The position numbers and the translations under genes were made by a program. DNA of 57,879 bases, taken from the IMG/VR virus record IMGVR_UViG_3300046011_002458, positions 1 through 57,879 of that record; one strand, 5' to 3'. Source of the DNA: a virus. Numbering within the stretch: the first letter of the stretch is position 1; each line of letters opens with the position of its first letter. The notes under the pieces were generated by a model that ran no database searches, was not told where the DNA came from, and was given only the letters and a program-made list of their open reading frames with translations. Shown here piece by piece: positions 1,125-52,721 of the stretch.

Positions 1125-1134
1125 TATCACAATG
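1125..1134 (+). promoter_or_regulatory. TATCACAATG site (exact)
   Basis: Exact copy of the recurring 10-mer, oriented with transcription. The last three bases are the ATG of the gene at 1132. No good -10 follows, so this one is more like a repressor stop site or a translation-initiation element than a promoter. Confidence 0.6.
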
Positions 1135-1502: not shown

Positions 1503-1726
1503 CCAATGACATCCTCACCGAAGACGACCTGTGCGCGATCGCGGACTACCACACCCGCGATGGTCTGAAGACCTGGCTGCGCTCGAACTGCATCCCGTTC
1601 ATCGAAGCCAAGAGCGGATGGCCGCGCGTGCATCGCAAGGCCCTCGAGCACGCGATGGGCGTGAAGCAGGGCGAAGACTTGACCAAAGGCGCGCCAGTGG
1701 AATTTAACTTCGACTCGTTGCGCTGA
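1499..1726 (+). CDS. DUF4224-like protein next to integrase
   Basis: The 75-residue product starts at GTG 1499, overlapping the membrane peptide's stop. It begins with an ILTEDDLCAIADYHTRDG segment and has RSNCIPF followed by GWPRVHRKALEHAMG, the pattern of DUF4224, a small winged-helix-like family that regularly sits immediately upstream of tyrosine integrases in Proteobacteria. By position it could be the recombination directionality factor; that is inference. Confidence 0.75.
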   Translation: MTNDILTEDDLCAIADYHTRDGLKTWLRSNCIPFIEAKSGWPRVHRKALEHAMGVKQGEDLTKGAPVEFNFDSLR

Positions 1727-1746
1727 AGTATCACAAGCCTTATAAT
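1718..1746 (+). promoter_or_regulatory. Integrase promoter with operator in the spacer
   Basis: -35 TTGCGC (1718-1723), 17-base spacer, -10 TATAAT (1741-1746). The spacer contains TATCACAAG (1729-1737), a variant of the recurring site. The predicted start of transcription falls on or next to the integrase ATG at 1753, so the message would be leaderless. The same -35, spacing and TATCACAAG arrangement appears before the primase gene. Confidence 0.7.
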
Positions 1747-1752
1747 TCACGC

Positions 1753-2838
1753 ATGAAAAGACTTCCACGCTTCAGCGAAAAACGCGGCACCAGCAAGAGC
1801 GGCAAGGAGTGGGTGGCCTACTACCACACGCCCAAGGTCGACGGCAAAGTCAAGTGGACGCCACTGGGCAACAACCGATCGGCCGCGCTGCGCAAGTGGG
1901 CCGAGCTGGAGTTCAAGCCTGTGCCCAACGAGGCCGGCACGTTCAACGCGGTGGCCGACCAGTACATGGTTTGGGCCGAGGCCGAGGTCGTCGTTGGCGA
2001 ACTGGCACCGCGCACGATCGCCGACCGCAAGAAGTACCTCAAGGTCATGCGCCCTGTGTTTGGCCAGCACCCCTTCGCCGCGATCAAGTCGTCGGACGTG
2101 GTCACCTACCTGGACGTGCGCGGCAAGACATCCAAGCACAGCGCCGGCCAAGAGCTGCGCTTCCTGTCGGTCATGTGGAACTGGGCCAAGGCCCGCGACA
2201 TTGTGACCACGGCCAACCCGGTGACGGGCATCAGGCTGCCGGGCACCGGCAATCGCATGATCGAGGTGCGGCCGCAGGACTACTGGCTGGTCCACGGCTG
2301 CGGCGATCGGATGGTGCAAGACGTCATGGAGCTGGCCGCCAGGCTGGGCACGCGCCCGCAGGAGGTCTTCGGCCTGACGTGGGGCAAGGTGGACCTGTCT
2401 GCGAGCCCGATCACGGTCAAGGTCTGGATGAACAAGACCACCGGTTTCAAGATCGTCGTTGCCGATGCCGAGCTGGAGGCGCTGATTCAACGCCTACGGG
2501 GCGATCGCGACCGCCCGAAGGGTCACGTACTGGTCGACGAGGATGGGGCCGCCCTGAACCCTGTGGGCGCTTTCCGGTACCGCTTCACCGCAGCACGGAC
2601 GGCGGCCGCCAAGAAAGCCGAAGAGGCCGAGGTCGATCACCAGGACTTCCAACTGCGGGACTTGCGCCCGATGGCCGGATTGGCCATGCTGGATGCCGAG
2701 GGCATGGACGCTGCGCGCCGCCTGCTTGGCCACACCACCGAGCGCATGACGGCGCACTACACCACCAAGCGTCGGGGCTTCGTCAGCAAGTCCGCGAGCA
2801 TCAAGGTTAGAAGTACTTCTAACCCTTCACAAGAGTGA
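1753..2838 (+). CDS. int: Tyrosine-family site-specific integrase
   Basis: The 361-residue protein catalyses attP/attB recombination. An N-terminal arm-binding region (about 1-55) is followed by a SAM-like core-binding domain (about 60-160) and the catalytic domain (about 175-345). Catalytic residues visible are Arg201 (LGTRPQEV), Arg305 in the LRDLRPMAG box (the usual box II His is replaced by Arg302), His327 in LLGHTTERM, and nucleophile Tyr336 in AHYTTKR. No Shine-Dalgarno precedes the ATG; the promoter -10 is only seven bases upstream. The attP candidate lies about 45 bases after the stop, as is usual for phages inserting into tRNA genes. Confidence 0.95.
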   Translation: MKRLPRFSEKRGTSKSGKEWVAYYHTPKVDGKVKWTPLGNNRSAALRKWAELEFKPVPNEAGTFNAVADQYMVWAEAEVVVGELAPRTIADRKKYLKVMRPVFGQHPFAAIKSSDVVTYLDVRGKTSKHSAGQELRFLSVMWNWAKARDIVTTANPVTGIRLPGTGNRMIEVRPQDYWLVHGCGDRMVQDVMELAARLGTRPQEVFGLTWGKVDLSASPITVKVWMNKTTGFKIVVADAELEALIQRLRGDRDRPKGHVLVDEDGAALNPVGAFRYRFTAARTAAAKKAEEAEVDHQDFQLRDLRPMAGLAMLDAEGMDAARRLLGHTTERMTAHYTTKRRGFVSKSASIKVRSTSNPSQE

Positions 2839-2881
2839 TTAAAATGCCCACTCGCAAGTGCTTGTCACTGCTCAGGAATTA

Positions 2882-2936
2882 TGGAGGCGGGGGTCGGAAT
2901 CGAACCGGCGTACACGGATTTGCAGTCCGCTGCCCA
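2882..2936 (-). other. attP: Candidate attP core: 3' half of a tRNA-Cys gene
   Basis: Read on the minus strand, 2936-2882 gives the anticodon arm with anticodon GCA (2921-2923), a T arm containing GGTTCGATTCC, an acceptor 3' strand CCCCGCC, a T discriminator and CCA (2884-2882). The matching 5' acceptor strand and D arm are not found upstream, so it is not a complete tRNA. A partial 3' tRNA copy beside an integrase is the classic sign of an attachment core that restores the host tRNA gene on insertion. A full but degenerate tRNA is the less likely alternative. Confidence 0.8.
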
Positions 2937-2950
2937 AAACTCACAGAAAC

Positions 2951-2966
2951 CCAGCAACCATGCTGG
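2951..2966. repeat. Small inverted repeat beside attP
   Basis: CCAGCA, ACCA, TGCTGG forms a perfect 6-bp inverted repeat 15 bases from the tRNA-like core. No T-run follows on either strand, so it is not a terminator; it could be an arm or accessory protein site of the attachment region. Confidence 0.4.
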
Positions 2967-3003
2967 TACCGGAGGTGGTCAGGCACTCTGATCACTTCTA
3001 ACA

Positions 3004-3013
3004 TATCACAATG
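3004..3013 (+). promoter_or_regulatory. TATCACAATG site (exact)
   Basis: Exact copy, plus orientation, 80 bases before the gp49-like operon. A -10-like TTGTAG follows after two bases but no convincing -35 is seen. It probably controls the 3084-5416 operon. Confidence 0.6.
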
Positions 3014-8400: not shown

Positions 8401-11400
8401 TGTAACCTCTCTTTCAATCCTGATTTTATCACGCTTGTGATATTTGCAAGCGGCACGATTTGAGCGTTGCCCGCCCCCTTTGAGTTGTCGATTGCAAACA
8501 GTCGGAAGCGGGGGTTGTCGCCAAACTCGTCCTGCAATTTGCGCACAGCCTCGCTTGAGCCTGCGTGGCCCTTGGTCAGGGCGTCGATGGTGACGGTCCG
8601 GCCCTTGCTCATCGCGCGGGTCAGCACGCCATTGCGCAGCGCTTCGACCGGCTCGCGGTAGATGTAGGCGATCAGCACGCGGTTGCCAGAATCGAGCGCC
8701 ATCTGCACGTTGCGGCGGGCCTTGTCGTAGCTCGAGAGCGTGCCATCCAAAATGGTGTGCGCCTTGTCCAGCTTTGACTTCAGCAATTCCTGTGCGCTCG
8801 ACTTGCCTGCGCCGCCACCGCCGGCCATGAATGCCACGGTGCCCTGCGGCTGGGTCTCGAGTCGAGACTCGAACATGCGCTGGGTCATGTCGCTTGCGGC
8901 CTCATGCACCTCGGGTGCGCGGCTGCGGTTCTGACGGTACTCGGGCGACAGCTCGCGCACCAGGTCGGTATCGAGCAAGCGGCCACCGTCGGAGCCCTTG
9001 AGGCCCGAGTACTCGGCCAAGGCACCGTCGAAGTCCTCGTCGATGCGAGCCTGCAGCGCAGCACCGATGCTGCGATTGCTGCGGCGGATGTCGGGATTGG
9101 TTGCGTCGAACGCGCCTTGAGCATGCTTTGGATTCAGGAGCAGTGCGCCCTCGTCGCCAAGGTCGGCCAGGATCAGCCAGCCGTCGACGGAATACTTCTT
9201 GATGTCCGAGCGATCGCCGTACTCCATGGCCTGCTCTACGGTGCGCGTCACCCAGATCGCGTCGGATGCCGGGATTGAAGCAAGGTCAACGCTCAGCTTG
9301 CCGGCGGATTCGCTGGCCAGCTCGCCGATGTCTTTATTGCCCAGTTCCTCGCTTTCGTACCGAACCACATCGGCCACCGTTGCATTTTTTGGTGGGTTGT
9401 AGTTCAGGGCTCGATAGCCATCACCGCGCCATGTGCGGTCTGTGCTTCTGCGGATGTCTGGGCGGTTGCTTGCCATGACGCGGCCAAACTGGAACGACGA
9501 GCCTGCATCGGCCAGTGCCTGGTCCGCGACTTCGGCCTCGCTTGCTTTGACGCGGGCCTCGCCAAACTCAAGACGGAACGATGGGGCCACCTCGGCCAGC
9601 GCTGGGCGGGCCTTGATGATGCTGACCATCTCGTTGCCCTCGGGCCGGCGCACCAGCTCGTCGCCTGCAGTGCGCGTGCGGTTGACGGCGACTGCGCGCT
9701 CGATCTTGCGCGGCACGATCGTCTGGCTAGAGGTTGTGCCTTGGTACTTGACCGGGACGTCGGAGTTGAGAACGACGGCCGTGCCTTGCTCGCGGTTGAC
9801 GTAACCACGGAAGCCGGCATCCAGGATGGCCGACTCGAACTCGTTGGGGGTTGCGGGGAAGGTGCGAGACCCGGCTGCCGGGTCGTACAGGTTGCTCAGG
9901 TCTGCGTTGTAGACGTGGCCACCGAGACCGAGCTCAGGCTGGGGGATGCCGCCGGCGACAGGCAGGTAGAAGTAGACGCGGCGCTTGATGCGGGCGTCAA
10001 CGCTTGGCTGGGCCAGGCGTGATTGCTCAGCGCCCTTGATGCCCGAACCGAAGCTGACGCCAGACAGGACACTCAGTCCCCCTTGCTTTCCGTAGTGGAC
10101 TGCCCCTGCAACCTTGATTGCATCGCCTTGATCGCCCCCAGCGCTGGATCTTCCGGCAGGTTCTGCAGGTCGGGCAGCGCGGTTGCTGAATTGGATTTTT
10201 CCTGCGTCGCCCCAGTCGTACCGCTCGCTGAAGTCGTCGAAGACTCGCTGGACCCGGGGCGCGAGATAAGCTCTGGCCCAGTCAAGAACATCGGATCTTC
10301 CTTCGGCACTGGCCCTCGCAACGTAATCTTGCCCATTTTGATTTTCCTTCCAATTGTTGGTCATCATGTCGCCGCTGGACGCAAACCACTGCGCGTCAGC
10401 ATCCGGCAACACAGATTCAGCCACACGCAGAATGTCCGCGTGCAGCTTTTCATTTGTGATGATACCAAAATTCACAAGCCTTATACCGCTTGGGGAGCTG
10501 ATAAAGGCGAATTGATCCTGCCAGCCCTCATGGCCATTGTCAGCCATCCACTGGCCGACAGCCGCCTCGAGGTCCGCCACTTCGCGGGGGTTGAGTGGGC
10601 GGCCAACCTTGATGTCCAGGCCATTGGCGTCGCGCTTCGTGCTTGAGTAGAACGGGCGGTGCCAGCCCACGCCCTCTTGGCGGGCCACCAGGCCAGCCAC
10701 GGCAGCGTAGACGTTGAGCGCCTTGGCCTGGGCGGGGTCGACGTTGGTCTTGCCGGCATCGCCCTTTGCTGGGGCCATGGCCACACCGAGCTGCGTGCTT
10801 GGCGAGATCTCGCCTTGCCACACGCCGGGGGCCAGGATGTCGTTGTCGACAAGCAAGCCCAACCGCATGGCCAACAGGTCATTGCCCTGCTCATCAAGGA
10901 ATGCCCGCTGCACAGCCTGCTGGAACTCCACCTGCTGCGCATAAGGCGCGTCGTGGATGCCGGGCAGAACACCCGTTGTGCGGCCAGGGCGAGCCTCAAA
11001 GGAGACCTGCCCGATGTGGCGCTTGAGGCCATCGCCAAAGTCGAACTTGGCCTGCTGTGTGTCGTCCTTTGTGACGTCGTGCGCGAAGGAATACTTGAGC
11101 CAGTTGTCGCGGTGCTTTTGCTTGTCGATGATGACCCGTTCCTTGCCCTTGCCGCCCTTGCCCGGCACGAACTTGATCCAGCCCTTCTTTTCGCTGGTGC
11201 GCTCGGTTTCTTTCTTAACGCCCTTGTTCTCCATGCGGGCCTTCATGGCCACCCAGATCGCGGCCTGCACCTGCTGCGGCTCCCAGCCCAGCTCTTGCGC
11301 CAAGCGGTTGGTCTCGTTCTCCATGAAAGAGTACTGCGTCGCAGTGGGCGCATCGGTCTCGTACTGACCGGCGCGCATCATCCACATGTCGATCGTCGCG

Positions 11401-17925: not shown

Positions 17926-18948
17926 TCAAATTCTTGGGATGGCCGTGTTGTAGAAACGCTCAGCCCAAGCGATTTGGCCGTTGGCGTAGTTCACCAGCGA
18001 CTGCACCTGCGCGGCACGTTCTGCAGCGGTCGGTCGACCGTCTGCGCTCATGGGTTGCGCATACACGTTGCCCACGCCCTGCATCACGGTGTTGCTGACG
18101 TTGGCCGCAAACTGCGTTGGGATCTGGGCGTTGCTCGCCTTGATCTGCAAGCCCATCTTGTCGAGCTCCATTTGGTTTTGCAGGATCTGGCGGCGCTCGA
18201 GGTTGTTCTGCTCGACGTTGAACTGGCTGCTCTTGAGTGCGAGCTCTTTGTCGAAGCGGTTTGTGATGCCGGCCTGCTCGAGCTGGATGGATGCCTCGCG
18301 CGATGCGATGTCACGCGCCTGGCGGAAGTCCATGCCCGACTCCTGCAGCATTTGCATCTGCTTGTTGTAGTCGTTCTGAATCTTGGTTTGGCCAGCCTGG
18401 AACTCTTGCTGACCAACTTGCAGGTTGCTTTGCTGGTTGCGATCGAGCTGGGCCTGCTGGCCCTGGAAGTTTTGCTGCAGCGTCTGCTGGCCAAACTTGT
18501 TGATCTCGCCGGCGTTGAATTGGCCAGACGTGTTCAGCGTGTTCGCGTTCTCGGCGGCGACCTGGTTGTAGGTGGCGGCGTCCTGAGCGGCGATCGGGGC
18601 TGCCTTGTCGATCATCGCAGCCACGCCAGCGCCCTGGGCCATGGAGCTGTTGACCAACCCCCGCTGAGCCATGTTCTGGGTGGCCAGCGTGCGTGCGCGG
18701 GCCATCAGGGGGCTGTCCTTGGACAGGATCGAATTGACCTGGCCCTGCACCGTGCCTGTGGGCTGGTCCACCTGGCGAGTGGTGGGGGCGTAGGTCGCCA
18801 CGTTCGGGGTGGTGGGGGCGGTTGTGCCCACGTTGCCGGGCAGCTCGCCAGACGTGGTGGGCTTCTGCGTCATGGCACCACCCACGATGCCCGTGTTGGT
18901 CGCCTTCGGCTGCTGCGTGTCAAATGGATTTTCTACGGTGGTAGCCAT
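17926..18948 (-). CDS. Gln-rich internal virion/tail protein
   Basis: The 340-residue protein has a low-complexity Thr/Pro/Gly N-terminus (1-70) and then a long Gln/Asn-rich helical region (about 110-270) with repeated QQxxQ patterns, typical of proteins packed inside podovirus heads or attached to the tail. The ATG at 18948 follows GAAAGG. It is separated from the lysis genes by an intrinsic terminator and a TATCACAATG site. Confidence 0.7.
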   Translation of the reverse strand: MATTVENPFDTQQPKATNTGIVGGAMTQKPTTSGELPGNVGTTAPTTPNVATYAPTTRQVDQPTGTVQGQVNSILSKDSPLMARARTLATQNMAQRGLVNSSMAQGAGVAAMIDKAAPIAAQDAATYNQVAAENANTLNTSGQFNAGEINKFGQQTLQQNFQGQQAQLDRNQQSNLQVGQQEFQAGQTKIQNDYNKQMQMLQESGMDFRQARDIASREASIQLEQAGITNRFDKELALKSSQFNVEQNNLERRQILQNQMELDKMGLQIKASNAQIPTQFAANVSNTVMQGVGNVYAQPMSADGRPTAAERAAQVQSLVNYANGQIAWAERFYNTAIPRI

Positions 18949-19026: not shown

Positions 19027-19045
19027 ATTCTAAATCATTGTGATA
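19027..19045 (-). promoter_or_regulatory. TATCACAATG site (exact) with -10-like TAGAAT
   Basis: The exact 10-mer (19045-19036, minus) is followed after three bases by TAGAAT (19032-19027). The -35 (CTGGCG, 18-base spacing) is weak. Placement is directly after the endolysin stop. Confidence 0.55.
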
Positions 19046-32745: not shown

Positions 32746-32775
32746 ATATTAACATCATTGTGATAGGCCGTGCAA
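32746..32775 (-). promoter_or_regulatory. Head-operon promoter with TATCACAATG in the spacer
   Basis: -35 TTGCAC (32775-32770), 18-base spacer containing exact TATCACAATG (32765-32756), -10 TAATAT (32751-32746), minus strand. It would transcribe the scaffold-capsid genes through the terminator at 32662-32690. Confidence 0.65.
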
Positions 32776-38277: not shown

Positions 38278-38306
38278 ACTATAGCATTGTGATACTGCGG
38301 GGTCAA
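38278..38306 (-). promoter_or_regulatory. Strong promoter before terS with TATCACAATG in the spacer
   Basis: -35 TTGACC (38306-38301), 17-base spacer containing exact TATCACAATG (38294-38285), -10 TATAGT (38283-38278), minus strand. This is one of the best sigma70 matches in the window. Confidence 0.75.
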
Positions 38307-41683: not shown

Positions 41684-41711
41684 ATTATAACCATTGTGAA
41701 GTATTAGCCAA
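41684..41711 (-). promoter_or_regulatory. Promoter with CTTCACAATG in the spacer
   Basis: -35 TTGGCT (41711-41706), 16-base spacer containing CTTCACAATG, -10 TATAAT (41689-41684), minus strand. It overlaps the stop of the upstream gene and drives 41642 and the chain below it. Confidence 0.7.
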
Positions 41712-43271: not shown

Positions 43272-43562
43272 TCATTGTGATACTTCGACCGACACCGGTT
43301 TGGCGGTCAAAACGATCTGCGTAGACAAAACAGGGGGGTGCTTATAGGGGGGTCTAGGTAAGAGAGTATTTGTATAAAAATATATATATATTTTTATTAT
43401 TGTTATATCCCTCAAACCATTGCCCCATGCGGCTTTCCGGCGGAGACAGAGGTGTCTACGTTTGTTGCTGCAGTTGACCCTTCTCCGGGTCACCAGGTCA
43501 TTGGCGTAGACGTTCTGGCCAATTGCGACGACAGCCTCTGTCTCTTTTAGTCCGACCATCAT
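43272..43562 (-). CDS. Doubtful small protein after the replication gene
   Basis: The start ATG 43562 overlaps the replication-gene stop and has AGAGGGGG upstream, so translation initiation is plausible. The first 50 residues look ordinary, but the C-terminal half runs through the AT-rich region (IKIYIYFYTN) and resembles no protein, and the frame crosses the inverted repeats. It may be only partly genuine. Confidence 0.3.
   Translation of the reverse strand: MMVGLKETEAVVAIGQNVYANDLVTRRRVNCSNKRRHLCLRRKAAWGNGLRDITIIKIYIYFYTNTLLPRPPYKHPPVLSTQIVLTAKPVSVEVSQ
43273..43282 (-). promoter_or_regulatory. TATCACAATG site (exact)
   Basis: Exact copy on the minus strand 22 bases before RusA. No clear -35 is present. 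Confidence 0.6.
43376..43395. repeat. AT-rich 20-base palindrome
   Basis: Five A, ten alternating TA, five T form a perfect 20-base palindrome within a strongly AT-rich stretch (about 43365-43410) in an otherwise GC-rich genome, between the replication gene and RusA. It is a candidate DNA-unwinding element. Confidence 0.7.
43444..43543. repeat. Nested inverted repeats near the AT-rich stretch
   Basis: Outer arms AGACAGAGG (43444-43452) and CCTCTGTCT (43535-43543) and inner arms GTCTACG (43454-43460) and CGTAGAC (43505-43511) form a nested arrangement; a third CGTAGAC is at 43320-43326. This could be origin-associated structure or binding sites. Confidence 0.5.
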
Positions 43563-46160: not shown

Positions 46161-46163
46161 AAA

Positions 46164-46192
46164 ACTTAACTCTTGTGATATTTTAAGCGCAA
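46164..46192 (-). promoter_or_regulatory. Promoter of the replication operon
   Basis: -35 TTGCGC (46192-46187), 17-base spacer containing TATCACAAG (46180-46172), -10 TTAAGT (46169-46164), minus strand. -35, spacing and operator are the same as for the integrase promoter; only the -10 is weaker. Confidence 0.6.
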
Positions 46193-46213: not shown

Positions 46214-46250
46214 TATCACAAGGCTTGCAATTTACTTCACACCCGTGATA
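46214..46250. promoter_or_regulatory. Two operator-like sites in the Cro-like gene's 3' region
   Basis: TATCACAAG (46214-46222, plus) and the TTCACACCCGTGATA palindrome (46236-46250) lie 14 bases apart. The second overlaps the stop codon of the Cro-like gene. They may serve autoregulation of the minus operon. Confidence 0.5.
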
Positions 46251-46437
46251 CTTTTCGTTTCAGGATGTCGGCGGCTGCTTTCAGCCTGCCCTTCGTGACG
46301 TGCTCGATGCGCAATTGCTGCAGGTGCGGAATTGCGCCGCGTTTTTTCCAGTTGCTGAGGGTCGGCTGTGTGACGCCGATGGCGTCTGCTGCCTGGACCT
46401 GGGAGCCGAAGTGTTTGATCAGTTGGTCGAATTTCAT
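46237..46437 (-). CDS. Cro-like/YdaS-type transcriptional regulator
   Basis: The 66-residue protein contains an HTH spanning FGSQVQAADAIGVTQPTLSNWKKRG (about 10-34) and a short C-terminal helix, matching the Cro/YdaS-like regulators that face the repressor in temperate phages. It is first in the leftward operon (with primase) and divergent from the repressor. It would compete with the repressor for the TATCACAATTGTGATA-type sites; that target is inferred. Confidence 0.85.
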   Translation of the reverse strand: MKFDQLIKHFGSQVQAADAIGVTQPTLSNWKKRGAIPHLQQLRIEHVTKGRLKAAADILKRKVSRV

Positions 46438-46469
46438 GTTGTTGTCGCTGTTGATGCGGTTCGGATAAG

Positions 46470-46499
46470 TATAACTCCTGTGATAGCGGTTAAACAAGA
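46470..46499 (-). promoter_or_regulatory. Promoter of the Cro-like gene
   Basis: -35 TTGTTT (46499-46494), 18-base spacer with TATCACAGG (46487-46479), -10 TATACT (46475-46470), minus strand. The -10 and operator overlap the region between the divergent regulators. Confidence 0.7.
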
Positions 46500-46546: not shown

Positions 46547-46891
46547 ATGACGAAGAATTTCGAGAAGCTCTCAATCGGCGATAGGCTTCGGTACTTGATC
46601 GAAGTACGCAAATACACGCAGGTTGAATTGGCAAAGAAAATTGGAGTAACCCAGGCTGCGATCAGCAACCTGGTGACGGACTCATCGAGAAAGCCAAGCG
46701 CCCCGACGCTGCTGAAACTGGCGGCCGCACTACAGGCAAATCCTGATTGGATCATGACCGGTGCAGGCGAGCCGTTCGAGATGAACATTGTGGGCAAGCG
46801 ATCCGAGCGCGAGCTGCTCGAGGCCTATCGCAACATGGACCCGCAGGCCCAGGCCGCCCTGATCGCTGCTGCAAAGGCCATGACAAAATAA
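46547..46891 (+). CDS. CI-like repressor without peptidase domain
   Basis: The 114-residue protein has an XRE-type HTH (GDRLRYLIEVRKYTQVELAKKIGVTQAAISNLVTDSSRKPS, about 10-50, with recognition helix GVTQAAISNLVT), a segment typical of phage repressors (LAAALQANPDWIMTGAGEP) and a short helical C-terminus. It lacks the S24/LexA-type self-cleaving domain, so induction is unlikely to work by RecA-stimulated autocleavage of this protein. It is divergent from the Cro-like gene, the typical immunity-region layout. Confidence 0.88.
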   Translation: MTKNFEKLSIGDRLRYLIEVRKYTQVELAKKIGVTQAAISNLVTDSSRKPSAPTLLKLAAALQANPDWIMTGAGEPFEMNIVGKRSERELLEAYRNMDPQAQAALIAAAKAMTK

Positions 46892-46892
46892 T

Positions 46893-46920
46893 ACCCGTGA
46901 AGTTTTGCGGGTCTTTGTTT
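46893..46920 (+). terminator. Weak intrinsic terminator after the repressor
   Basis: ACCCG, ten-base loop, CGGGT followed by CTTTGTTT. It separates the repressor transcript from the next early promoter. Confidence 0.55.
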
Positions 46921-46949
46921 GACGGTCGACTTCACAATTGTGATATAGT
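46919..46949 (+). promoter_or_regulatory. Early promoter P1 with palindromic operator
   Basis: -35 TTGACG (46919-46924), 19-base spacer containing TTCACAATTGTGA (46931-46943), -10 TATAGT (46944-46949). Confidence 0.7.
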
Positions 46950-46955
46950 CGAGGC

Positions 46956-46994
46956 GTCGGTTGATTGAAACCGACCCGGCCCAGAGGTTCTGGG
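46956..46994 (+). promoter_or_regulatory. Leader hairpins of P1
   Basis: A 7-bp hairpin GTCGGTT/AACCGAC (46956-46975) is followed by CCCAG, loop, CTGGG (46980-46994), then CAGGAG. The second hairpin is shared with P2, P4 and P5 leaders. Confidence 0.65.
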
Positions 46995-47014
46995 ACACGT
47001 CAGGAGACCAGATC

Positions 47015-47233
47015 ATGAGAAACATCACCACCATATCCGACAACGTGTTTGACCGGTTCATCAAGCCCATGGATTACGTTTCAAACGGAACTGACGTTGG
47101 TCGCTACTTTGGAACGACGGACAGGGGGACTCGCGTTGTGGCTTGGGGAGACAAGCGCGACGATCACGAGACCGCCGTTAAGCTTATTGCATACCTGCAA
47201 AGGCACTCAGCACAAAAAAAAATCGAGGCTTGA
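47015..47233 (+). CDS. Small early protein, unknown
   Basis: The 72-residue product starts at ATG 47015 after CAGGAG. It is a basic/acidic mixed protein with FDRFIKPMDYVSNGTDVGRYFG and a Lys-rich C-terminus. It is the first gene of the P1 cassette. Function unknown. Confidence 0.6.
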   Translation: MRNITTISDNVFDRFIKPMDYVSNGTDVGRYFGTTDRGTRVVAWGDKRDDHETAVKLIAYLQRHSAQKKIEA

Positions 47234-47240
47234 TCCGAAC

Positions 47241-47250
47241 TATCACATTG
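47241..47250 (+). promoter_or_regulatory. TATCACATTG site (one mismatch)
   Basis: Site directly before the Shine-Dalgarno of 47265 (TATCACATTG, then ATTTAGGA). Confidence 0.5.
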
Positions 47251-47264
47251 ATTTAGGAATCATC

Positions 47265-47471
47265 ATGCGAGCACAAAACCAATACCAAGTCACCATCCAG
47301 CCAGGCGGCTCGTGGCCAGCGTTTGAGACCACCGTCTTGGCGGCCACGCAGTACCGCGCTGAGTTGGCTGCCGTCCAGCAATACCGCGCCGACTATGCCG
47401 CCTCGGGCTGCATGGCACCAAGCATCACAAGCATCCAATGCGAAGAGTTGAACACTACTTCACAATTGTGA
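47265..47471 (+). CDS. Small early protein, unknown; stop lies in operator
   Basis: The 68-residue product starts at ATG 47265. Its last residues TSQL and the stop are encoded by the TTCACAATTGTGA operator of promoter P2. Mixed alpha/beta composition with several Gln/Ala. Function unknown. Confidence 0.6.
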   Translation: MRAQNQYQVTIQPGGSWPAFETTVLAATQYRAELAAVQQYRADYAASGCMAPSITSIQCEELNTTSQL

Positions 47472-47477
47472 TATAAT
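47448..47477 (+). promoter_or_regulatory. Early promoter P2 with palindromic operator
   Basis: -35 TTGAAC (47448-47453), 18-base spacer with TTCACAATTGTGA (47459-47471), -10 TATAAT (47472-47477), the best -10 of the family. Confidence 0.8.
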
Positions 47478-47488
47478 TCAATCACTGG

Positions 47489-47504
47489 CCCGGCAGATCC
47501 CGGG
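47489..47504 (+). promoter_or_regulatory. Leader hairpin of P2
   Basis: CCCGG, six-base loop, CCGGG, then ACGCGACAGGAG. Compared with P5 (CCCAG/CTGGG) the fourth stem pair changes from A-T to G-C on both sides, a compensatory change. Confidence 0.7.
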
Positions 47505-47522
47505 ACGCGACAGGAGTCCAAA

Positions 47523-47711
47523 ATGCAAGTTATCGAAGTCAATCTCAAAAGCGTGTACGGCGAAATCAAGGCCTACCCGATCAACGAAGCCGCCAAGCTG
47601 TTTGCAGACCTGGCCGGCACCAAGACCCTCACCGTCCAATCCCTCAAGAAGATCCAGGCCCTTGGCTATGAGATCAAGGCCGTCGACCCGCTGGCCCTCG
47701 CTTTCGCCTAA
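47523..47711 (+). CDS. Small early protein, unknown
   Basis: The 62-residue product starts with MQVIEVNLKSVYGEIKAYPINEAAKLF and has a basic helical middle. ATG 47523 follows CAGGAG. Function unknown. Confidence 0.6.
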   Translation: MQVIEVNLKSVYGEIKAYPINEAAKLFADLAGTKTLTVQSLKKIQALGYEIKAVDPLALAFA

Positions 47712-47713
47712 TT

Positions 47714-47723
47714 CATCACATTG
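47714..47723 (+). promoter_or_regulatory. CATCACATTG site (two mismatches)
   Basis: Divergent copy directly before TTCTGGAG of 47742. Confidence 0.4.
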
Positions 47724-47741
47724 CTTATTCTGGAGAACGAC

Positions 47742-48089
47742 ATGACTACACCAACCATCAACACCCGCAAAGACTATTTCGGCAAGTGGGTTGCCACCAG
47801 CAACATCGCCCTGGCTGGCGACCGCCAGCTCAAGATCAGCACCAGCAAGGACCAGCGCGGCAACCTGACCACCTACGCCAGTGTGGCGATCGTCCGCAAC
47901 GAAGCCGGTGCCCGCATCGAGACCTTCGAGGTGTACGGCGACTACATGAAGTCCATTCGCAAGAGCCAGCCCAAGATGGTCAACGAGAAGCGCGCCCGTG
48001 AGCAGCAAGAGCTCGTGCTCGAGGAAGACCTGCAGCTCGTGCTGTGCGACGTCAAAAACTTCTACGCCGAAAAAGGCATCGAGGTCTGA
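47742..48089 (+). CDS. Early protein of unknown function, 115 residues
   Basis: ATG 47742 has CTGGAG upstream. It is mostly beta-strand with charged loops in the first half (KDYFGKWVATSNIALAGDRQLKISTSKDQRG) and a helical C-terminus (NEKRAREQQELVLEEDLQLVLCDVKNFYAEKG). No family recognised. Confidence 0.65.
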   Translation: MTTPTINTRKDYFGKWVATSNIALAGDRQLKISTSKDQRGNLTTYASVAIVRNEAGARIETFEVYGDYMKSIRKSQPKMVNEKRAREQQELVLEEDLQLVLCDVKNFYAEKGIEV

Positions 48090-48117
48090 CACAGCAACAT
48101 CAAACCAGGAGATAGCC

Positions 48118-48336
48118 ATGTCGTATTACAGCAAACGCCGTTACAACCCGCCTGCAGATGTTTACGCCGCCAGCACGCTGATTGGCCGCAACACCGGCAA
48201 CTGGCAGACCCCAGTGCGCGGCACCAACGATCAGGAGTATCAGGTCTACCTGACCTGCGCCGATGACGGCAAGGGCGGCGACATCACCCGGGGCGGTGCC
48301 CCACTCAAGAGCTACGACGAGTGGCTCGCGTCTTGA
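48118..48336 (+). CDS. Small early protein, unknown
   Basis: The 72-residue product starts with MSYYSKRRYNPPADVYAAS and is rich in Tyr and Gly. ATG 48118 follows AGGAG. Unknown function. Confidence 0.6.
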   Translation: MSYYSKRRYNPPADVYAASTLIGRNTGNWQTPVRGTNDQEYQVYLTCADDGKGGDITRGGAPLKSYDEWLAS

Positions 48337-48350
48337 ACCAGGAGATCGCC

Positions 48351-48569
48351 ATGTTCACCATCTACATCGTCGACCGTGCCAACCAACTCTCACAGCAGAC
48401 CTTTGGCCGCCAGGACGACGCAGACGCTGCCACCGACCAGTGGGAAGCCGTCGGCGGCTGCGAGGTCTACACCAACCGCCTGGCCGCAGTCCTGGCCAAA
48501 GATGACTATGACCGATTCATTCGTCGTCAGTCGCAGCGATCAGGCTTGTGCATGACTTCACAATTGTGA
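48351..48569 (+). CDS. Small early protein, unknown; stop lies in operator
   Basis: The 72-residue product starts MFTIYIVDRANQLSQQTFGRQDDADAATDQWEAVGGCEVY. Like the product at 47265 it ends in TSQL encoded by a TTCACAATTGTGA operator. Unknown function. Confidence 0.6.
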   Translation: MFTIYIVDRANQLSQQTFGRQDDADAATDQWEAVGGCEVYTNRLAAVLAKDDYDRFIRRQSQRSGLCMTSQL

Positions 48570-48575
48570 TATACT
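48546..48575 (+). promoter_or_regulatory. Early promoter P3 with palindromic operator
   Basis: -35 TTGTGC (48546-48551), 18-base spacer with TTCACAATTGTGA (48557-48569), -10 TATACT (48570-48575). No leader hairpin follows here. Confidence 0.75.
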
Positions 48576-48594
48576 GACATCAAAGGAGAACGAA

Positions 48595-48741
48595 ATGAGA
48601 GACCTGGCCCTAGCACTTGAAAGACTGAACGACTTGATCGACGGCGGATGGGAGTTCCCTGACGCCTGCGGCAAAGTGGCCCGCGAAGATGGCGTTAACT
48701 ACGACGCCCTGCGCGATGCCTATGACGAACAGTTTGCCTGA
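48595..48741 (+). CDS. 48-residue acidic protein
   Basis: A short gene starting at ATG 48595 after AAAGGAGAACGA, the first gene of P3. The product is acidic and helical (LALALERLNDLIDGGWEFPDACGKVAREDGVNYDALRDAYDEQFA). Its position right after a promoter and its own Shine-Dalgarno support it as real. Confidence 0.65.
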   Translation: MRDLALALERLNDLIDGGWEFPDACGKVAREDGVNYDALRDAYDEQFA

Positions 48742-48743
48742 CC

Positions 48744-48753
48744 TATCACATTG
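48744..48753 (+). promoter_or_regulatory. TATCACATTG site (one mismatch)
   Basis: Site just before ATTTAGGAG of 48770; the 20 bases from 48744 resemble those before 47265. Confidence 0.5.
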
Positions 48754-48769
48754 ATTTAGGAGACCCCAA

Positions 48770-49048
48770 ATGAACAACTTGAACCCCGTCTTCGCCCTGG
48801 CCCTTGCACCCTTTGCGCCACCCGTCGAGATCGACATCAAGTGGCTTGCCTTCTGCGAGAGCGAGCTGCGCAACGCCCGCCGTCAGTACGACAGCAAGCC
48901 TGACTGGAACGCAGACAAGCAGACCTGGGCCGCTGAGATCGTCAAGCTCGAGCGCGACATCGAAGAGCTGAAGGCCGGCGTGGCACGCGACGACCTGACC
49001 AGCGTGAAGAACTGGAACATGCCCGCCTGGGGCTACAGCGGCACCTGA
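48770..49048 (+). CDS. Early protein of unknown function, 92 residues
   Basis: The product has a hydrophobic N-terminus (VFALALAPFAPPVEI), then a coiled segment (KQTWAAEIVKLERDIEELKAGVARDDL). ATG 48770 follows AGGAGA. Unknown function. Confidence 0.6.
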   Translation: MNNLNPVFALALAPFAPPVEIDIKWLAFCESELRNARRQYDSKPDWNADKQTWAAEIVKLERDIEELKAGVARDDLTSVKNWNMPAWGYSGT

Positions 49049-49050
49049 AA

Positions 49051-49060
49051 TATCACAATG
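49051..49060 (+). promoter_or_regulatory. TATCACAATG site (exact)
   Basis: Exact copy followed by CCATAGGAGA before ATG 49076. Confidence 0.55.
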
Positions 49061-49075
49061 CCATAGGAGAACGAC

Positions 49076-49324
49076 ATGAGCCGATTCAACAGCCCTGCAG
49101 AGGTCCTGGCCGCCGCCGAGAAGTGGGCCGCTCAGCTTTACCGCAACAACCTCGAGAAGGGCCACGCCCTCAACCCTTACTGTACCCCGGGAGCCATCGC
49201 CGAGTTCGACCATGGGTTCAACGGTGACCCGCGCCGCTCGTGGGACATCCCGGTCGAGTGGGACTTCCGCTATCAGGCTGGTGCAGCAGTGCGCCGCCTT
49301 GTTGATCAAAAGGTGGCCGCATGA
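49076..49324 (+). CDS. Early protein of unknown function, 82 residues
   Basis: The product is helical, with several Trp residues (EVLAAAEKWAAQLYRNNLEKGHALNPYCTPGAIAEFDHGF). It overlaps the next gene by ATGA. Unknown function. Confidence 0.6.
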   Translation: MSRFNSPAEVLAAAEKWAAQLYRNNLEKGHALNPYCTPGAIAEFDHGFNGDPRRSWDIPVEWDFRYQAGAAVRRLVDQKVAA

Positions 49325-49446
49325 GATACGACCTGTTCGAGCTCACCACCGCCGGCATGACGCCAGCCCAGCGCGCCTGGCGCGTTGCCTTCCTGCTGGC
49401 AACCATTGCGGTGTGCTTGCTTGACCTTTTTGTTTGGAGACCATGA
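49321..49446 (+). CDS. 41-residue membrane peptide
   Basis: ATG 49321 overlaps the previous stop. It has one membrane span (about 20-37, AWRVAFLLATIAVCLLDLFVW). Unknown role. Confidence 0.6.
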   Translation: MRYDLFELTTAGMTPAQRAWRVAFLLATIAVCLLDLFVWRP

Positions 49447-49676
49447 TGACCCTGATTGCAAACCTGCGGCACGCTGCCCGCAACCGTGAGACCGTGACCA
49501 TAGGTGGCGGAGAGTTTGGACCTGCCGAGCTGCTCGAGGCTGCGCGCGTGCTCGAGCTACACAGCCAGCTGCTGGGGGCGCTGAAGGCTTCACTGGACTG
49601 GGTCCCGGCCCACCTAAATTCGCGGCGTCTTGCCGAGGCCGCCATCGCCGAGGCAGCAGGAGCCAGCCATGGGTGA
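49443..49676 (+). CDS. Small helical protein, unknown
   Basis: The 77-residue product starts at ATG 49443 (TTTGGAGACC upstream; a TTG start at 49434 is less likely). It is helical with GPAELLEAARVLELHSQLLGALKASLDW. Unknown function. Confidence 0.55.
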   Translation: MMTLIANLRHAARNRETVTIGGGEFGPAELLEAARVLELHSQLLGALKASLDWVPAHLNSRRLAEAAIAEAAGASHG

Positions 49677-49872
49677 CATGGCCGAAGCCTTCCGTGACCT
49701 GCGCGACCACAAGAAAGCCCTACGTCAGCGCTACGGCGTGCTGTGCCCGCAGTGCCAGATCGTGCGTCCCAAGGCGCACCCCACCATCCTGATGCCGGGC
49801 CAGAAGTGCAAGGTCGACGGATACCGAGACGCGCGCCCTCATTTGACCGAAGAACAATGGAGCAACCCATGA
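49669..49872 (+). CDS. Small protein with CxxC motif
   Basis: The 67-residue product from ATG 49669 has LCPQCQIVRPKAHPTILMPGQKC, a zinc-finger-like arrangement with three cysteines. Unknown function. Confidence 0.55.
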   Translation: MGDMAEAFRDLRDHKKALRQRYGVLCPQCQIVRPKAHPTILMPGQKCKVDGYRDARPHLTEEQWSNP

Positions 49873-50051
49873 ACACTCGCAAGTACCCCCGAACCATGAA
49901 CGAGGCATTCCCGAAGACCGTGGAGTACGCCTGCTCAATCGACCGCCCTGGCCGCTACGCCCTGCGAACCTGGCCACGCATCCTGGGTGCCGCGTGCCTG
50001 GTGCTGCTGGTCATGTACGGCGTCGCATGTTCATTCCCGACTAAATCATAG
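49869..50051 (+). CDS. Small membrane protein
   Basis: The 60-residue product from ATG 49869 has one membrane span (about 38-54, ILGAACLVLLVMYGVAC) after a basic N-terminus. Unknown function. Confidence 0.55.
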   Translation: MNTRKYPRTMNEAFPKTVEYACSIDRPGRYALRTWPRILGAACLVLLVMYGVACSFPTKS

Positions 50052-50053
50052 GG

Positions 50054-50083
50054 TCTTGCATGACTTCACAATTGTGATATAAT
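50054..50083 (+). promoter_or_regulatory. Early promoter P4 with palindromic operator
   Basis: The sequence from TTGCATGAC to TATAAT (50056-50083) shares about 25 bases with P3. Operator TTCACAATTGTGA (50065-50077), -10 TATAAT (50078-50083). The -35 is TTGCAT with a 16-base spacer or TCTTGC with 18. Confidence 0.75.
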
Positions 50084-50112
50084 AAATTCAACGAAGCGAA
50101 ATTCGTTACCGA

Positions 50113-50127
50113 CCTGGCGGTTCCAGG
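50113..50127 (+). promoter_or_regulatory. Leader hairpin of P4
   Basis: CCTGG, five-base loop, CCAGG, in the same position relative to the promoter as the hairpins of P1, P2 and P5, with different paired bases. Confidence 0.65.
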
Positions 50128-50150
50128 CGCTCCTAAGAAGGACACCCAAA

Positions 50151-50618
50151 ATGGCACGCTCTGTATCTACCCCCAGCAACACTGTCTACACCGAGTACAA
50201 CTCTTGCGACTTTGAAGACAGCTACGAGTTCGACATGGCCGTCGAAAACCTTCAAGACGCACTGCGCAGCGCATTCCCAAGCGTCAGCGCTTGCAGTGAG
50301 TGGCTCGACCGCGAAGACCGCGCCATTGCTGAGAACAGCTACGCCTACTTTGGCGTGAGCGAGTACTGCGGCCTGGTTGCCGTGTGGTGCGCAGCAAAAG
50401 ATCCTGACTACTACGCCAACGGCGGCTTCGAGGCCTTGCGTGACCGGTGGATCGATCAGATCGAGGGCAAGTTCCGCGCTGCAGCTCGCGGCAGCTTCGG
50501 CCAGGCATTGGTCCAGACCGCCCGCTTCAGCAACGGCGAAGCGATGTTCTCTGCGGTTGGCGCTCCCAACCAAGGCGAGCTGGGCCTCGGCTACAGCAGC
50601 AAAGAAGGCTGGATCTAA
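50151..50618 (+). CDS. Early protein of unknown function, 155 residues
   Basis: The product is acidic and aromatic-rich, with YNSCDFEDSYEFDMAVENLQDALR near the N-terminus and an IDQIEGKFRAAARGSFGQAL helix near the C-terminus. ATG 50151 follows AAGGACACCC. It is the first gene of P4; such a placement is typical of host-takeover or anti-defence genes, but no family is recognised. Confidence 0.65.
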   Translation: MARSVSTPSNTVYTEYNSCDFEDSYEFDMAVENLQDALRSAFPSVSACSEWLDREDRAIAENSYAYFGVSEYCGLVAVWCAAKDPDYYANGGFEALRDRWIDQIEGKFRAAARGSFGQALVQTARFSNGEAMFSAVGAPNQGELGLGYSSKEGWI

Positions 50619-50619
50619 A

Positions 50620-50629
50620 TATCACATTG
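50620..50629 (+). promoter_or_regulatory. TATCACATTG site (one mismatch)
   Basis: Followed by CTATAGGAGA before ATG 50647. Confidence 0.5.
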
Positions 50630-50646
50630 CTATAGGAGAAACCATC

Positions 50647-51123
50647 ATGACTTCATTCAACAAAATCCTTCTCGGCAAACTCAAGGCCAACGCTGGCATA
50701 CAAATCGCCGACGGCGAAAACATCTGGCTTGAAAAACACAAGTGGGACTGCGGGTGGTACTGGGGCTTCGGCTACGTCGGCAACGCGAAATGCCACTTTC
50801 ACTTCGACAGCCTGCTGTACATCAAGGACAGCAAGGGCTCAGTCTCGTACACCGCCAGCGACTTGTTTCAGTCCACCGAAATCACAGACCGTGAGTGGTG
50901 GGTCATCCGTGACCTGTTCGTGCAGGCCTATGCCCTAAAGAAAGCCGCCGAGGTTTATCAGAAGGGCGGCCACCAAAGCACCGAGCCCGGCACGACTGAC
51001 GTCATCAAAAACACCGCCTTGGCCAAACAGATCAACGCCGACCTGCAGAAGGTGCTCGACCTTGCATGGGACTACACCTGCAAGGCAGTGAACAAAAAAT
51101 ATTTGATCAGCACGCCCGCTTAA
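50647..51123 (+). CDS. Early protein of unknown function, 158 residues
   Basis: The product has an unusual aromatic-rich N-terminal half (WDCGWYWGFGYVGNAKCHFHFDSLLY, about 38-63) and a helical C-terminal half (about 85-150). No membrane segment. Unknown function. Confidence 0.65.
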   Translation: MTSFNKILLGKLKANAGIQIADGENIWLEKHKWDCGWYWGFGYVGNAKCHFHFDSLLYIKDSKGSVSYTASDLFQSTEITDREWWVIRDLFVQAYALKKAAEVYQKGGHQSTEPGTTDVIKNTALAKQINADLQKVLDLAWDYTCKAVNKKYLISTPA

Positions 51124-51124
51124 C

Positions 51125-51144
51125 TATCACAATTGTGATATACT
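51125..51144 (+). promoter_or_regulatory. Early promoter P5 with perfect palindromic operator
   Basis: TATCACAATTGTGATA (51125-51140) is a perfect 16-base palindrome directly before -10 TATACT (51139-51144). No good -35 is visible at 17-18 bases, so activation or a different element may be needed. Confidence 0.6.
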
Positions 51145-51155
51145 AAACACACTGG

Positions 51156-51171
51156 CCCAGCAGATTCTGGG
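51156..51171 (+). promoter_or_regulatory. Leader hairpin of P5
   Basis: CCCAG, loop, CTGGG, then GACGCTTCAGGAG; nearly identical to the P2 leader with compensatory changes in the stem. Confidence 0.7.
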
Positions 51172-51189
51172 ACGCTTCAGGAGAACACC

Positions 51190-51666
51190 ATGTCCGCATT
51201 CATTGTCAGCAACGCCCAGATCAACGCCCTCGTGCGTTTCGCAAGCATCAACAACATCAGCTTTTTTTACGGCGCAACGTCGCAGCGCTGGAACATCTCC
51301 GGCAACGAAGATGCCACCGCCCAGGTCCTACTGGACGAGAACGTCCGCAGCGTCAACTACCGTTACAAGGAAGAAGGCGAGCCTGCCGCGATCGTGTACC
51401 AGATCGACGCCCCAGTCCTGACCCCTGTGCAAATCATCAAGGCCGCGCAGTGCCTCGAGTATCAGAGCTGCGAGACGCCTGACTGGGACAAGACCATGGC
51501 CAAGCAACTGATCGACGCCATCATTTCCACGGCCATCACCAAGCTGCCAGGCTACGACGATGCGCCATGGTCCATCTACGAAGACACATTTCCCAAGGGT
51601 CCGGTCGGTCTGCTGGACGTGGCCCGCAAGATGGGCAAGTTGCAAGTCGTTCGCGTGGGAGACTGA
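51190..51666 (+). CDS. Conserved early protein of unknown function, 158 residues
   Basis: The product begins MSAFIVSNAQINALVRFAS and continues with ATAQVLLDENVRSVNYRYKE and ILA-rich helices near the middle. Proteins of this N-terminal type are found in several proteobacterial phages and plasmids, always uncharacterised. ATG 51190 follows CAGGAG. Unknown function. Confidence 0.65.
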   Translation: MSAFIVSNAQINALVRFASINNISFFYGATSQRWNISGNEDATAQVLLDENVRSVNYRYKEEGEPAAIVYQIDAPVLTPVQIIKAAQCLEYQSCETPDWDKTMAKQLIDAIISTAITKLPGYDDAPWSIYEDTFPKGPVGLLDVARKMGKLQVVRVGD

Positions 51667-51668
51667 TC

Positions 51669-51842
51669 ATGATCACCATTGAAATCAACAACAGCGGCAG
51701 CGCATTCGACGAGCCACGCGAGGAAATCGCCCGCATCCTGCGCGAGCTGGCTGTGCAAATTGAGGCGGGCAACACCCCCTACTTTTTGCGCGACTTTAAC
51801 GGCAACCGCTGCGGCACCGTGCAAATGAAGCTGGAGAATTAA
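51669..51842 (+). CDS. 57-residue protein of unknown function
   Basis: ATG 51669 follows the previous stop by two bases. The product has ARILRELAVQIEAGNTPYFLRDFNGNRCG. Unknown function. Confidence 0.55.
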   Translation: MITIEINNSGSAFDEPREEIARILRELAVQIEAGNTPYFLRDFNGNRCGTVQMKLEN

Positions 51843-51844
51843 CC

Positions 51845-52054
51845 ATGAAAGTCCGCACCATCATCGGCGCACAGGCCGCCTACGCCTGCATCGAGATCGA
51901 CACCACGTCGATGGACGTCCGCCTTGAGCCCGGCCGCTCAGCAGCGCAGTCGCTGCGCGAAACCGCAGAGGAGTGGCGCGAGAAAGCCAGACGCCTGCAG
52001 GAGCGAGCAAACCTCCTGAGCGTGGCGGCCGTCAAGCTCGAGGAGGCCGCATGA
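51845..52054 (+). CDS. 69-residue coiled-coil protein
   Basis: The C-terminal half (REKARRLQERANLLSVAAVKLEEA) is a coiled coil. Unknown function. It overlaps the next gene by ATGA. Confidence 0.55.
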   Translation: MKVRTIIGAQAAYACIEIDTTSMDVRLEPGRSAAQSLRETAEEWREKARRLQERANLLSVAAVKLEEAA

Positions 52055-52239
52055 AATACGCCATCAAGCTCCTCTACGACAACGGCCAGTGCGCCTACCT
52101 CGACGTCAAGGGCAAGAGCTCTTGGAAGACCAAGCGTGCCGCGCAAAAGCACCTTGACGTCTGCCTGCAACTGCTGGCCAAGGACCGCTTCTTCAGAGGC
52201 GTGGTCGAGGTCACGCTGGAAAAAGATTTTTTTGTTTGA
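52051..52239 (+). CDS. 62-residue protein of unknown function
   Basis: The product is basic, with KLLYDNGQCAYLDVKGKSSWKTKRAAQKHLDVCLQLLAKDRFF. Unknown function. Confidence 0.55.
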   Translation: MKYAIKLLYDNGQCAYLDVKGKSSWKTKRAAQKHLDVCLQLLAKDRFFRGVVEVTLEKDFFV

Positions 52240-52243
52240 CCCC

Positions 52244-52271
52244 TTGCAACACTTCACAATGCTGATATACT
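52244..52271 (+). promoter_or_regulatory. Early promoter P6 with imperfect operator
   Basis: -35 TTGCAA (52244-52249), 16-base spacer with TTCACAATGCTGA (52253-52265), -10 TATACT (52266-52271). It drives the recombination/replication block. No leader hairpin. Confidence 0.7.
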
Positions 52272-52711: not shown

Positions 52712-52721
52712 TATCACAATG
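52712..52721 (+). promoter_or_regulatory. TATCACAATG site (exact) on a start codon
   Basis: The exact 10-mer includes the ATG of 52719, with CAGGAG directly upstream. Confidence 0.55.

What the first reader, a model, noticed from the sequence alone, without database searches (positions are those of the whole stretch)
46919..52271. Promoter architecture: operator fixed just upstream of the -10
At 46919, 47448, 48546, 50054, 52244, 46470 (-), 46164 (-), 41684 (-), 38278 (-), 32746 (-) and 1718 a TATAxT-like -10 follows the TCACAA core after a nearly constant distance, with a TTGxxx -35 16-19 bases upstream. The operator therefore lies inside the spacer, where a bound protein would block RNA polymerase directly. 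Integrase, Cro, primase, terminase and early genes would all belong to one regulon.
Basis: seen in the sequence. Interest (0 to 1): 0.75.

Follow-up and report, generated by a model that had tools for sequence, protein, structure and literature searches.

The report
Two-class repressor sites across a phage
In a family of uncultured bacterial viruses almost every strong promoter has a repressor-binding site wedged against its -10 box, and a second, one-directional version of that site sits at gene starts inside operons and disappears in relatives that have lost the repressor gene, which suggests the virus silences itself both at promoters and along its operons.

Summary
An unbiased sigma-70 scan of the window gives 14 promoter-like sites, 10 with TCACA in the spacer, including the nine best. 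The distance to the -10 takes two values, not one: palindromes TCAC-N4-GTGA abut the -10 directly (core plus 6 nt; TAnnnT lies at offset 0 in 47 non-redundant sites, at most 4 at any other offset), while asymmetric sites lie 3-4 nt away.

They point with transcription 45:1 where orientation is not forced.

Related phages that lost the repressor gene (at least three times) provide a natural test. In the closest group, palindromes are kept 29/29 and asymmetric sites 8/41; between repressor-bearing phages, between-gene asymmetric sites are kept 89/147.

Best reading: Cro (P22/N15-Cro-like) holds the promoter palindromes, and the small P22-c2/DicA-like CI holds the asymmetric sites, blocking initiation at promoters and probably elongation inside operons. 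It works like mycobacteriophage L5 stoperators, with an unrelated repressor. No binding or transcription data exist. New variant of a known kind.

The parts
46919..46949 (+). Early promoter: -35 TTGACG, palindrome TCACAATTGTGA 46932-46943, -10 TATAGT
47448..47477 (+). Early promoter: TTGAAC-18-TATAAT with palindrome 47460-47471
48546..48575 (+). Early promoter: TTGTGC-18-TATACT with palindrome 48558-48569
50056..50083 (+). Early promoter: TTGCAT-16-TATAAT with palindrome 50066-50077
51125..51144 (+).
52244..52271 (+). Promoter TTGCAA-16-TATACT with imperfect operator CTTCACAATGCTGATA; conserved in relatives
46468..46497 (-). cro promoter TTGTTT-18-TATACT with TATCACAGGAG in the spacer
46163..46192 (-). 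Site TATCACAAGAGTTAAGTT upstream of primase; weak promoter
   Evidence: 5.6 bits
46237..46248 (.). Palindrome TCACACCCGTGA at the 3' end of cro; present in most relatives as TCACGCGCGTGA or similar
41684..41711 (-). Promoter TTGGCT-16-TATAAT with CTTCACAATGG
38278..38306 (-). Terminase-operon promoter TTGACC-17-TATAGT with TATCACAATGC
32746..32775 (-). Promoter-like TTGCAC-18-TAATAT with TATCACAATGATG
1718..1746 (+). Integrase promoter TTGCGC-17-TATAAT with TATCACAAGCC
47241..47258 (+). S-type site TATCACATTGATTTAGGA next to the Shine-Dalgarno of the gene starting at 47265
48744..48761 (+). S-type site TATCACATTGATTTAGGA next to the Shine-Dalgarno, gene start 48770
49051..49068 (+). S-type site TATCACAATGCCATAGGA, gene start 49076
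50620..50637 (+). S-type site TATCACATTGCTATAGGA, gene start 50647
47714..47731 (+). Degenerate S-type site CATCACATTGCTTATTCT, gene start 47742
52712..52721 (+). D-type site GGAG-TATCACAATG whose ATG is the start codon (52719)
1125..1134 (+). D-type site TATCACAATG whose ATG (1132) starts a predicted gene
19028..19045 (-). Asymmetric site after the endolysin stop codon
43265..43282 (-). Asymmetric intergenic site TATCACAATGATGTATTG
46547..46891 (+). CI: 114-aa repressor, HTH_3, P22 c2 / DicA-like, no peptidase domain
46237..46437 (-). Cro: 66 aa, P22_Cro family, N15 Cro / DicC-like

Best explanation
This is a dispersed immunity regulon of a temperate phage family with two overlapping classes of sites. 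(1) At promoters, a palindrome TCAC-N4-GTGA (or an imperfect version) sits in the sigma-70 spacer with its right arm abutting the -10. A dimer of Cro (and probably CI) bound there excludes RNA polymerase. (2) Between genes and at gene starts, an asymmetric site TATCACA-[A/T]-TGnT, pointing with transcription, is bound by the small CI in the lysogen and stops polymerases that escaped or read through, a stoperator-like road-block. Shown by sequence: both classes, their spacing, orientation, conservation, and loss of the asymmetric class in CI-less relatives. Inferred: which protein binds which class, and the road-block step.
For: 14 promoter-like sites at 10.5 bits or more in 58 kb, 10 with the motif, top nine all with it. 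TAnnnT at offset 0 from GTGA in 47 non-redundant sites against at most 4 at any other offset. Motif about 7-12-fold over expectation in each full-length repressor-bearing phage checked. Asymmetric non-promoter, non-start sites co-oriented 45:1 (17:0 S-type plus 28:1 other). CI-less relatives keep Cro (PF14549), have a clean CI gap and no tyrosine integrase. Orthologous palindromes retained 29/29, asymmetric sites 8/41. In the other two CI-less lineages between-gene sites are retained 0/7 and 0/22, against 89/147 between CI+ phages. At least three separate CI losses are forced on a Sak4 tree. In one lineage the terminator in front of Sak4 is kept while its loop changes from TATCACA to CGCTATC/CGCGAGC/CGCTAGC. 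Small DNA-binding regulators can act as elongation road-blocks (Kpn2I C-protein, PMC6237814).
Against: No binding, footprint or transcript data. CI loss coincides with loss of a detectable integrase, so the asymmetric sites could depend on lysogeny in general. D-type sites are partly kept in CI-less phages (3/3 as CATCACAATGG in G030), so they may serve translation initiation. CI-broken G026 still has all classes (recent loss or assembly error). CI+ genome G023 had no tyrosine integrase hit. Some CI+ phages (G012, G028, G031, G032) have few or no TCACAnnTGTGA palindromes. Ortholog counts are not independent events. The swap test, a different CI with a different motif, was not available.
Confidence: 0.6

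Rival explanations
1. Classical operator occlusion only: one repressor (CI) binds the promoter sites, and the asymmetric sites inside operons are decayed promoters or weak promoters without function as road-blocks.
For: Several asymmetric sites are promoters, and the right half of the asymmetric motif resembles an extended -10.
Against: S-type sites have no good -35, a predicted start would fall after the Shine-Dalgarno, and the left arm TATCACA is the conserved part while the -10-like part is degenerate. They are kept in 61% of CI+ comparisons.
Confidence: 0.17
2. The gene-start sites (S and D) act on the mRNA: a ribosome-binding-site module or the target of a phage antisense RNA, unrelated to the promoter operators.
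For: Placement next to the Shine-Dalgarno or over the ATG; D-type sites partly kept in CI-less phages.
Against: The same 8-mer sits upstream of the transcription start in promoters, where it is not in the RNA. S-type sites vanish in CI-less phages although the genes and their Shine-Dalgarnos stay.
Confidence: 0.1
3. The motif is an activator site or phage-specific promoter element, not an operator.
For: It is found at nearly all good promoters.
Against: The promoters already have TTG -35 and TAnnnT -10 boxes, and the site lies between them, where activators rarely sit. Palindrome symmetry is kept while the centre varies.
Confidence: 0.05
4. The sites are read by a host regulator and not by a phage protein.
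For: The host is unknown and was not examined, so no tool result speaks for this; it is simply not excluded.
Against: The asymmetric class follows presence or absence of the phage's own CI within one phage family.
Confidence: 0.03

Closest known systems
Mycobacteriophage L5 / cluster A stoperators (PMC9283540, PMC6550527)
   Same: Many asymmetric repressor sites, both in promoters and in short intergenic gaps, mostly oriented with transcription; the repressor is proposed to stop initiation and elongation.
   Different: L5-type repressors are larger monomers with an HTH plus a stoperator domain. Here the repressor is a 114-aa P22 c2/434-type HTH protein with two extra helices, the motif is unrelated, and there is a separate Cro with palindromic sites.
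Phage P1 C1 operators (PMC8546580)
   Same: Asymmetric operators (22) dispersed over the genome, controlled by one repressor.
   Different: 17-bp ATTGCTCTAATAAATTT with no resemblance here; no oriented gene-start class is reported in the passages read.
P22 c2/Cro, N15 and DicA/DicC immunity regions
   Same: Protein families: CI resembles P22 c2 (PDB 1adr, E 6.6e-6) and DicA; Cro resembles N15 Cro (2hin, E 1.5e-6) and DicC.
   Different: From general knowledge these systems use a few operators near the immunity region, not a genome-wide oriented set.
T1-like phage direct repeats (PMC11447400, PMC4319613)
   Same: Asymmetric, mainly intergenic, one orientation; authors compared them with stoperators.
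   Different: Sequence ATAGCACnnnTTGnTAAAA, about 76 nt upstream of start codons (TLS), in lytic phages; role unknown.
Kpn2I C-protein road-block (PMC6237814)
   Same: A transcription regulator acting as an elongation road-block.
   Different: It acts on its own gene in a restriction-modification system, not across a phage genome.

Membership tests
L5-type stoperator system | Many asymmetric sites, oriented with transcription, in short intergenic gaps | tested here: met
   45:1 co-orientation in non-redundant intergenic non-promoter sites
L5-type stoperator system | Same sites also lie in promoters as operators | tested here: met
   P_asym class inside sigma-70 spacers; position only, function not tested
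L5-type stoperator system | Repressor homologous to L5 gp71 / TipsytheTRex with a stoperator domain | tested here: not met
   CI matches P22 c2/434, not L5-type, by sequence and fold; 114 aa with only two C-terminal helices
L5-type stoperator system | Repressor binding halts elongation, orientation-dependent | not testable with these tools
   needs in vivo or in vitro transcription
P22/N15-Cro family (PF14549) | Sequence family membership of the 66-aa protein | tested here: met
   PF14549 E 5.7e-16, above curated cut-off
P22/N15-Cro family (PF14549) | Binds the palindromic operator as a dimer | not testable with these tools
   inferred from palindromes kept in CI-less, Cro-bearing relatives
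Lambda-type operator occlusion | Operator overlaps RNA polymerase contacts of the promoter | tested here: met
   operator in the spacer, sharing TA with the -10
P1 C1 operator set | Consensus ATTGCTCTAATAAATTT | tested here: not met
   no such motif among the enriched words of the window

The most novel reading that the evidence does not exclude
A stoperator system that arose independently of actinobacteriophages, run by a very small P22 c2/DicA-type repressor, in which site symmetry divides the labour: palindromes at promoters for Cro, asymmetric oriented sites at gene starts and in terminator loops for CI.
Probability: 0.45. Interest if true: 0.7.

Novelty: new variant of a known kind. Interest (0 to 1): 0.52.

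Why it matters
Repression of elongation by a phage repressor at many oriented sites has been studied mainly in L5-like actinobacteriophages. Here an unrelated, minimal repressor appears to do the same, and natural CI-deletion relatives show which sites depend on it. It would make testable how an asymmetric HTH-protein site stops RNA polymerase in one direction only, and it offers a way to sort Cro from CI targets by comparing temperate and virulent relatives.

Tried and rejected
Megablast of 18 kb of the window against named phages: no match. CI in genome contigs: only distant HTH proteins, no prophage and no host. Named-phage Cro relatives (EBPR podovirus 1, Pseudoalteromonas AL, N15, phiAH14a, D14O): no TCAC-N4-GTGA near cro; they have other recognition helices. 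Attempt to link Cro helix type (SNW versus SMW) with palindromes: suggestive but inconclusive. Rfam and tRNA scans: empty. The motif strings are not in the open phage literature searched. Distant CI loci L027-L033 carry no TCACAATTGTGA and show no clear enrichment of the half-site, so no repressor-swap test was possible.

Full report
What is in the sequence. The window is a 57.9-kb virus record, 61% G+C, with integrase (1753-2838), terminase genes, endolysin, a Prim-Pol/DUF3987 primase and an immunity region of two divergent genes: a 66-aa P22_Cro protein (46237-46437, -) and a 114-aa HTH_3 repressor, here CI (46547-46891, +). The word TATCACAA occurs 19 times where 0.4 is expected, and TCACAATTGTGA occurs at five places where none is expected.

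The promoter claim. All 11 listed places have a TCACA core between a TTGxxx hexamer and a -10-like hexamer at spacers 16-19. Scanned without reference to the motif, the window has 14 sigma-70-like sites of at least 10.5 bits; ten have TCACA in the spacer, including the nine best. The distance is two-valued: 6 nt for the five listed early sites, 51127 and 32746, and 3-4 nt for the others. The weak members are 46164 (TAAGTT), 51127 (no -35) and, less so, 32746. Across 25 relatives the palindrome TCAC-N4-GTGA is followed at once by TAnnnT (47 non-redundant cases at offset 0, at most four at any other).

The same left arm occurs where there is no convincing promoter: TATCACATTGATTTAGGAG and similar, 22-28 nt before start codons and merged with the Shine-Dalgarno (S-type), or GGAG-TATCACA-ATG with the start codon inside (D-type). 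Many directly follow the stop codon of the preceding gene. Leaving out promoter and D-type sites, whose direction is forced, the non-redundant asymmetric intergenic sites point with transcription 45:1 (17:0 S-type, 28:1 other). The left arm TATCACA-[AT]-TG is the conserved part and the right side is degenerate (the arm itself was part of the search definition).

Relatives. Twelve viral contigs carry the exact 19-mer. Protein searches with CI, primase and Sak4 gave many more metagenome relatives, none a named phage. Three 47% G+C contigs (L005-L007) share the 19-mer but have just one to three such sites and no CI or Cro close to the window's; G003 has a Cro-like protein with a similar SNW recognition helix beside its sites.

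The natural experiment. Several Sak4 relatives have Cro but no CI: G014/G016, G018/G020/G025 and G030; G026 has a truncated CI. L110 and L111 are nearly identical on both sides of the missing gene. Of the CI+ records checked, the window, G008, G009, G012, G028, G029, G031 and G032 have a tyrosine integrase; the CI-less records checked have none; CI+ G023 had no hit either. A Sak4 tree forces at least three CI losses. In the G018/G020/G025 group, orthologous palindromes are kept 29/29 and asymmetric sites 8/41 (Fisher p about 1e-12, but the counts are not independent). In G030 the between-gene sites are kept 0/7 while asymmetric promoter and D-type sites stay 3/3 each. In G014-G017 between-gene sites are kept 0/22 (some of these comparisons are within genes, identity is 60-75% and alignments there are loose), and palindromic promoters remain. 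CI+ to CI+ comparisons keep 89/147 between-gene, 45/61 asymmetric promoter, 18/22 palindrome and 14/32 D-type sites. One promoter changes from CTTCACAATGCTGATATAAT in CI+ phages to the palindrome TTTCACACCTGTGATACAAT in a lineage where no CI was found. In front of Sak4 an intrinsic-terminator-like hairpin GGGCAA-TATCACA-TTGCCC-ATTTTTT is kept in CI-less relatives with another loop.

Mechanism. The simplest reading is that Cro, retained in every CI-less relative whose immunity region is covered, is the protein that keeps the palindromes, and that CI keeps the asymmetric sites. CI may also bind the palindromes, which contain the same half-site on the other strand. At promoters, binding would exclude polymerase. 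Inside operons the site lies in transcribed DNA, so CI would have to act on elongation, as in L5. The direction bias fits this. Binding partners and the road-block step are inferred.

Comparison. It works like L5 stoperators (PMC9283540, PMC6550527) but is not a member of that family: CI is a P22 c2/434/DicA-type protein by sequence and by fold, and the motif is unrelated. P1 C1 also has dispersed asymmetric operators (PMC8546580). T1-like phages have oriented intergenic repeats of unknown role (PMC11447400, PMC4319613). The promoter part alone is textbook occlusion; the added value lies in the oriented second class, the small repressor and the CI-loss test.

Limits. Promoters are consensus matches, gene starts come from a simple gene caller, contigs may be incomplete, the host is unknown, and D-type sites may partly reflect translation initiation.

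Noticed in passing
window 46950-47010, 47478-47522, 50084-50150, 51145-51189: Early leaders contain a short hairpin just upstream of the Shine-Dalgarno (CCCAG..CTGGG, CCCGG..CCGGG, CCTGG..CCAGG) with changes on both sides, also in relatives; a possible conserved 5' leader element.
   Followed up: partly
L045 (G006) near 18150; L110 and relatives upstream of Sak4: The asymmetric site forms the loop of an intrinsic-terminator-like hairpin GGGCAA-TATCACA-TTGCCC-ATTTTTT; CI-less relatives keep the stem and change the loop.
   Followed up: yes
window 8408-8449, minus strand: A promoter-like site with TATCACAAGCGTGATA and TAAAAT lies inside the 3213-aa ORF, in the ORF's own direction.
   Followed up: no
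window 1741-1753: The predicted start from the integrase promoter falls on the first base of the predicted integrase ATG, so the message would be leaderless, or the start codon is further downstream.
   Followed up: no
window about 2800-3010: Repeats TTAGAAGTACTTCTAA / CACTTCTAAC around the end of integrase next to operator-like sites; similar in G012. They could be integrase or attachment-site elements.
   Followed up: no
window 43370-43420: AT-rich inverted run ATATATATAT near a RusA-like gene; one of the few strong promoter-like spots without the motif; a possible replication origin.
   Followed up: no
L095 1708-2408, L097 1495-2195: Cluster of about ten TCATCCGCA repeats in both orientations beside the primase gene in CI-less relatives, possibly iterons.
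   Followed up: no
L005, L006, L007: 47% G+C phages carry the identical 19-mer ACTTCACAATTGTGATATA at only one to three sites; G003 has a Cro-like gene beside it.
   Followed up: partly
L126 3321 (G026): CI is truncated after about 22 matching residues by a short repeat insertion (GCGCTACTGTT repeated) while most sites are intact: recent loss or assembly error.
   Followed up: partly
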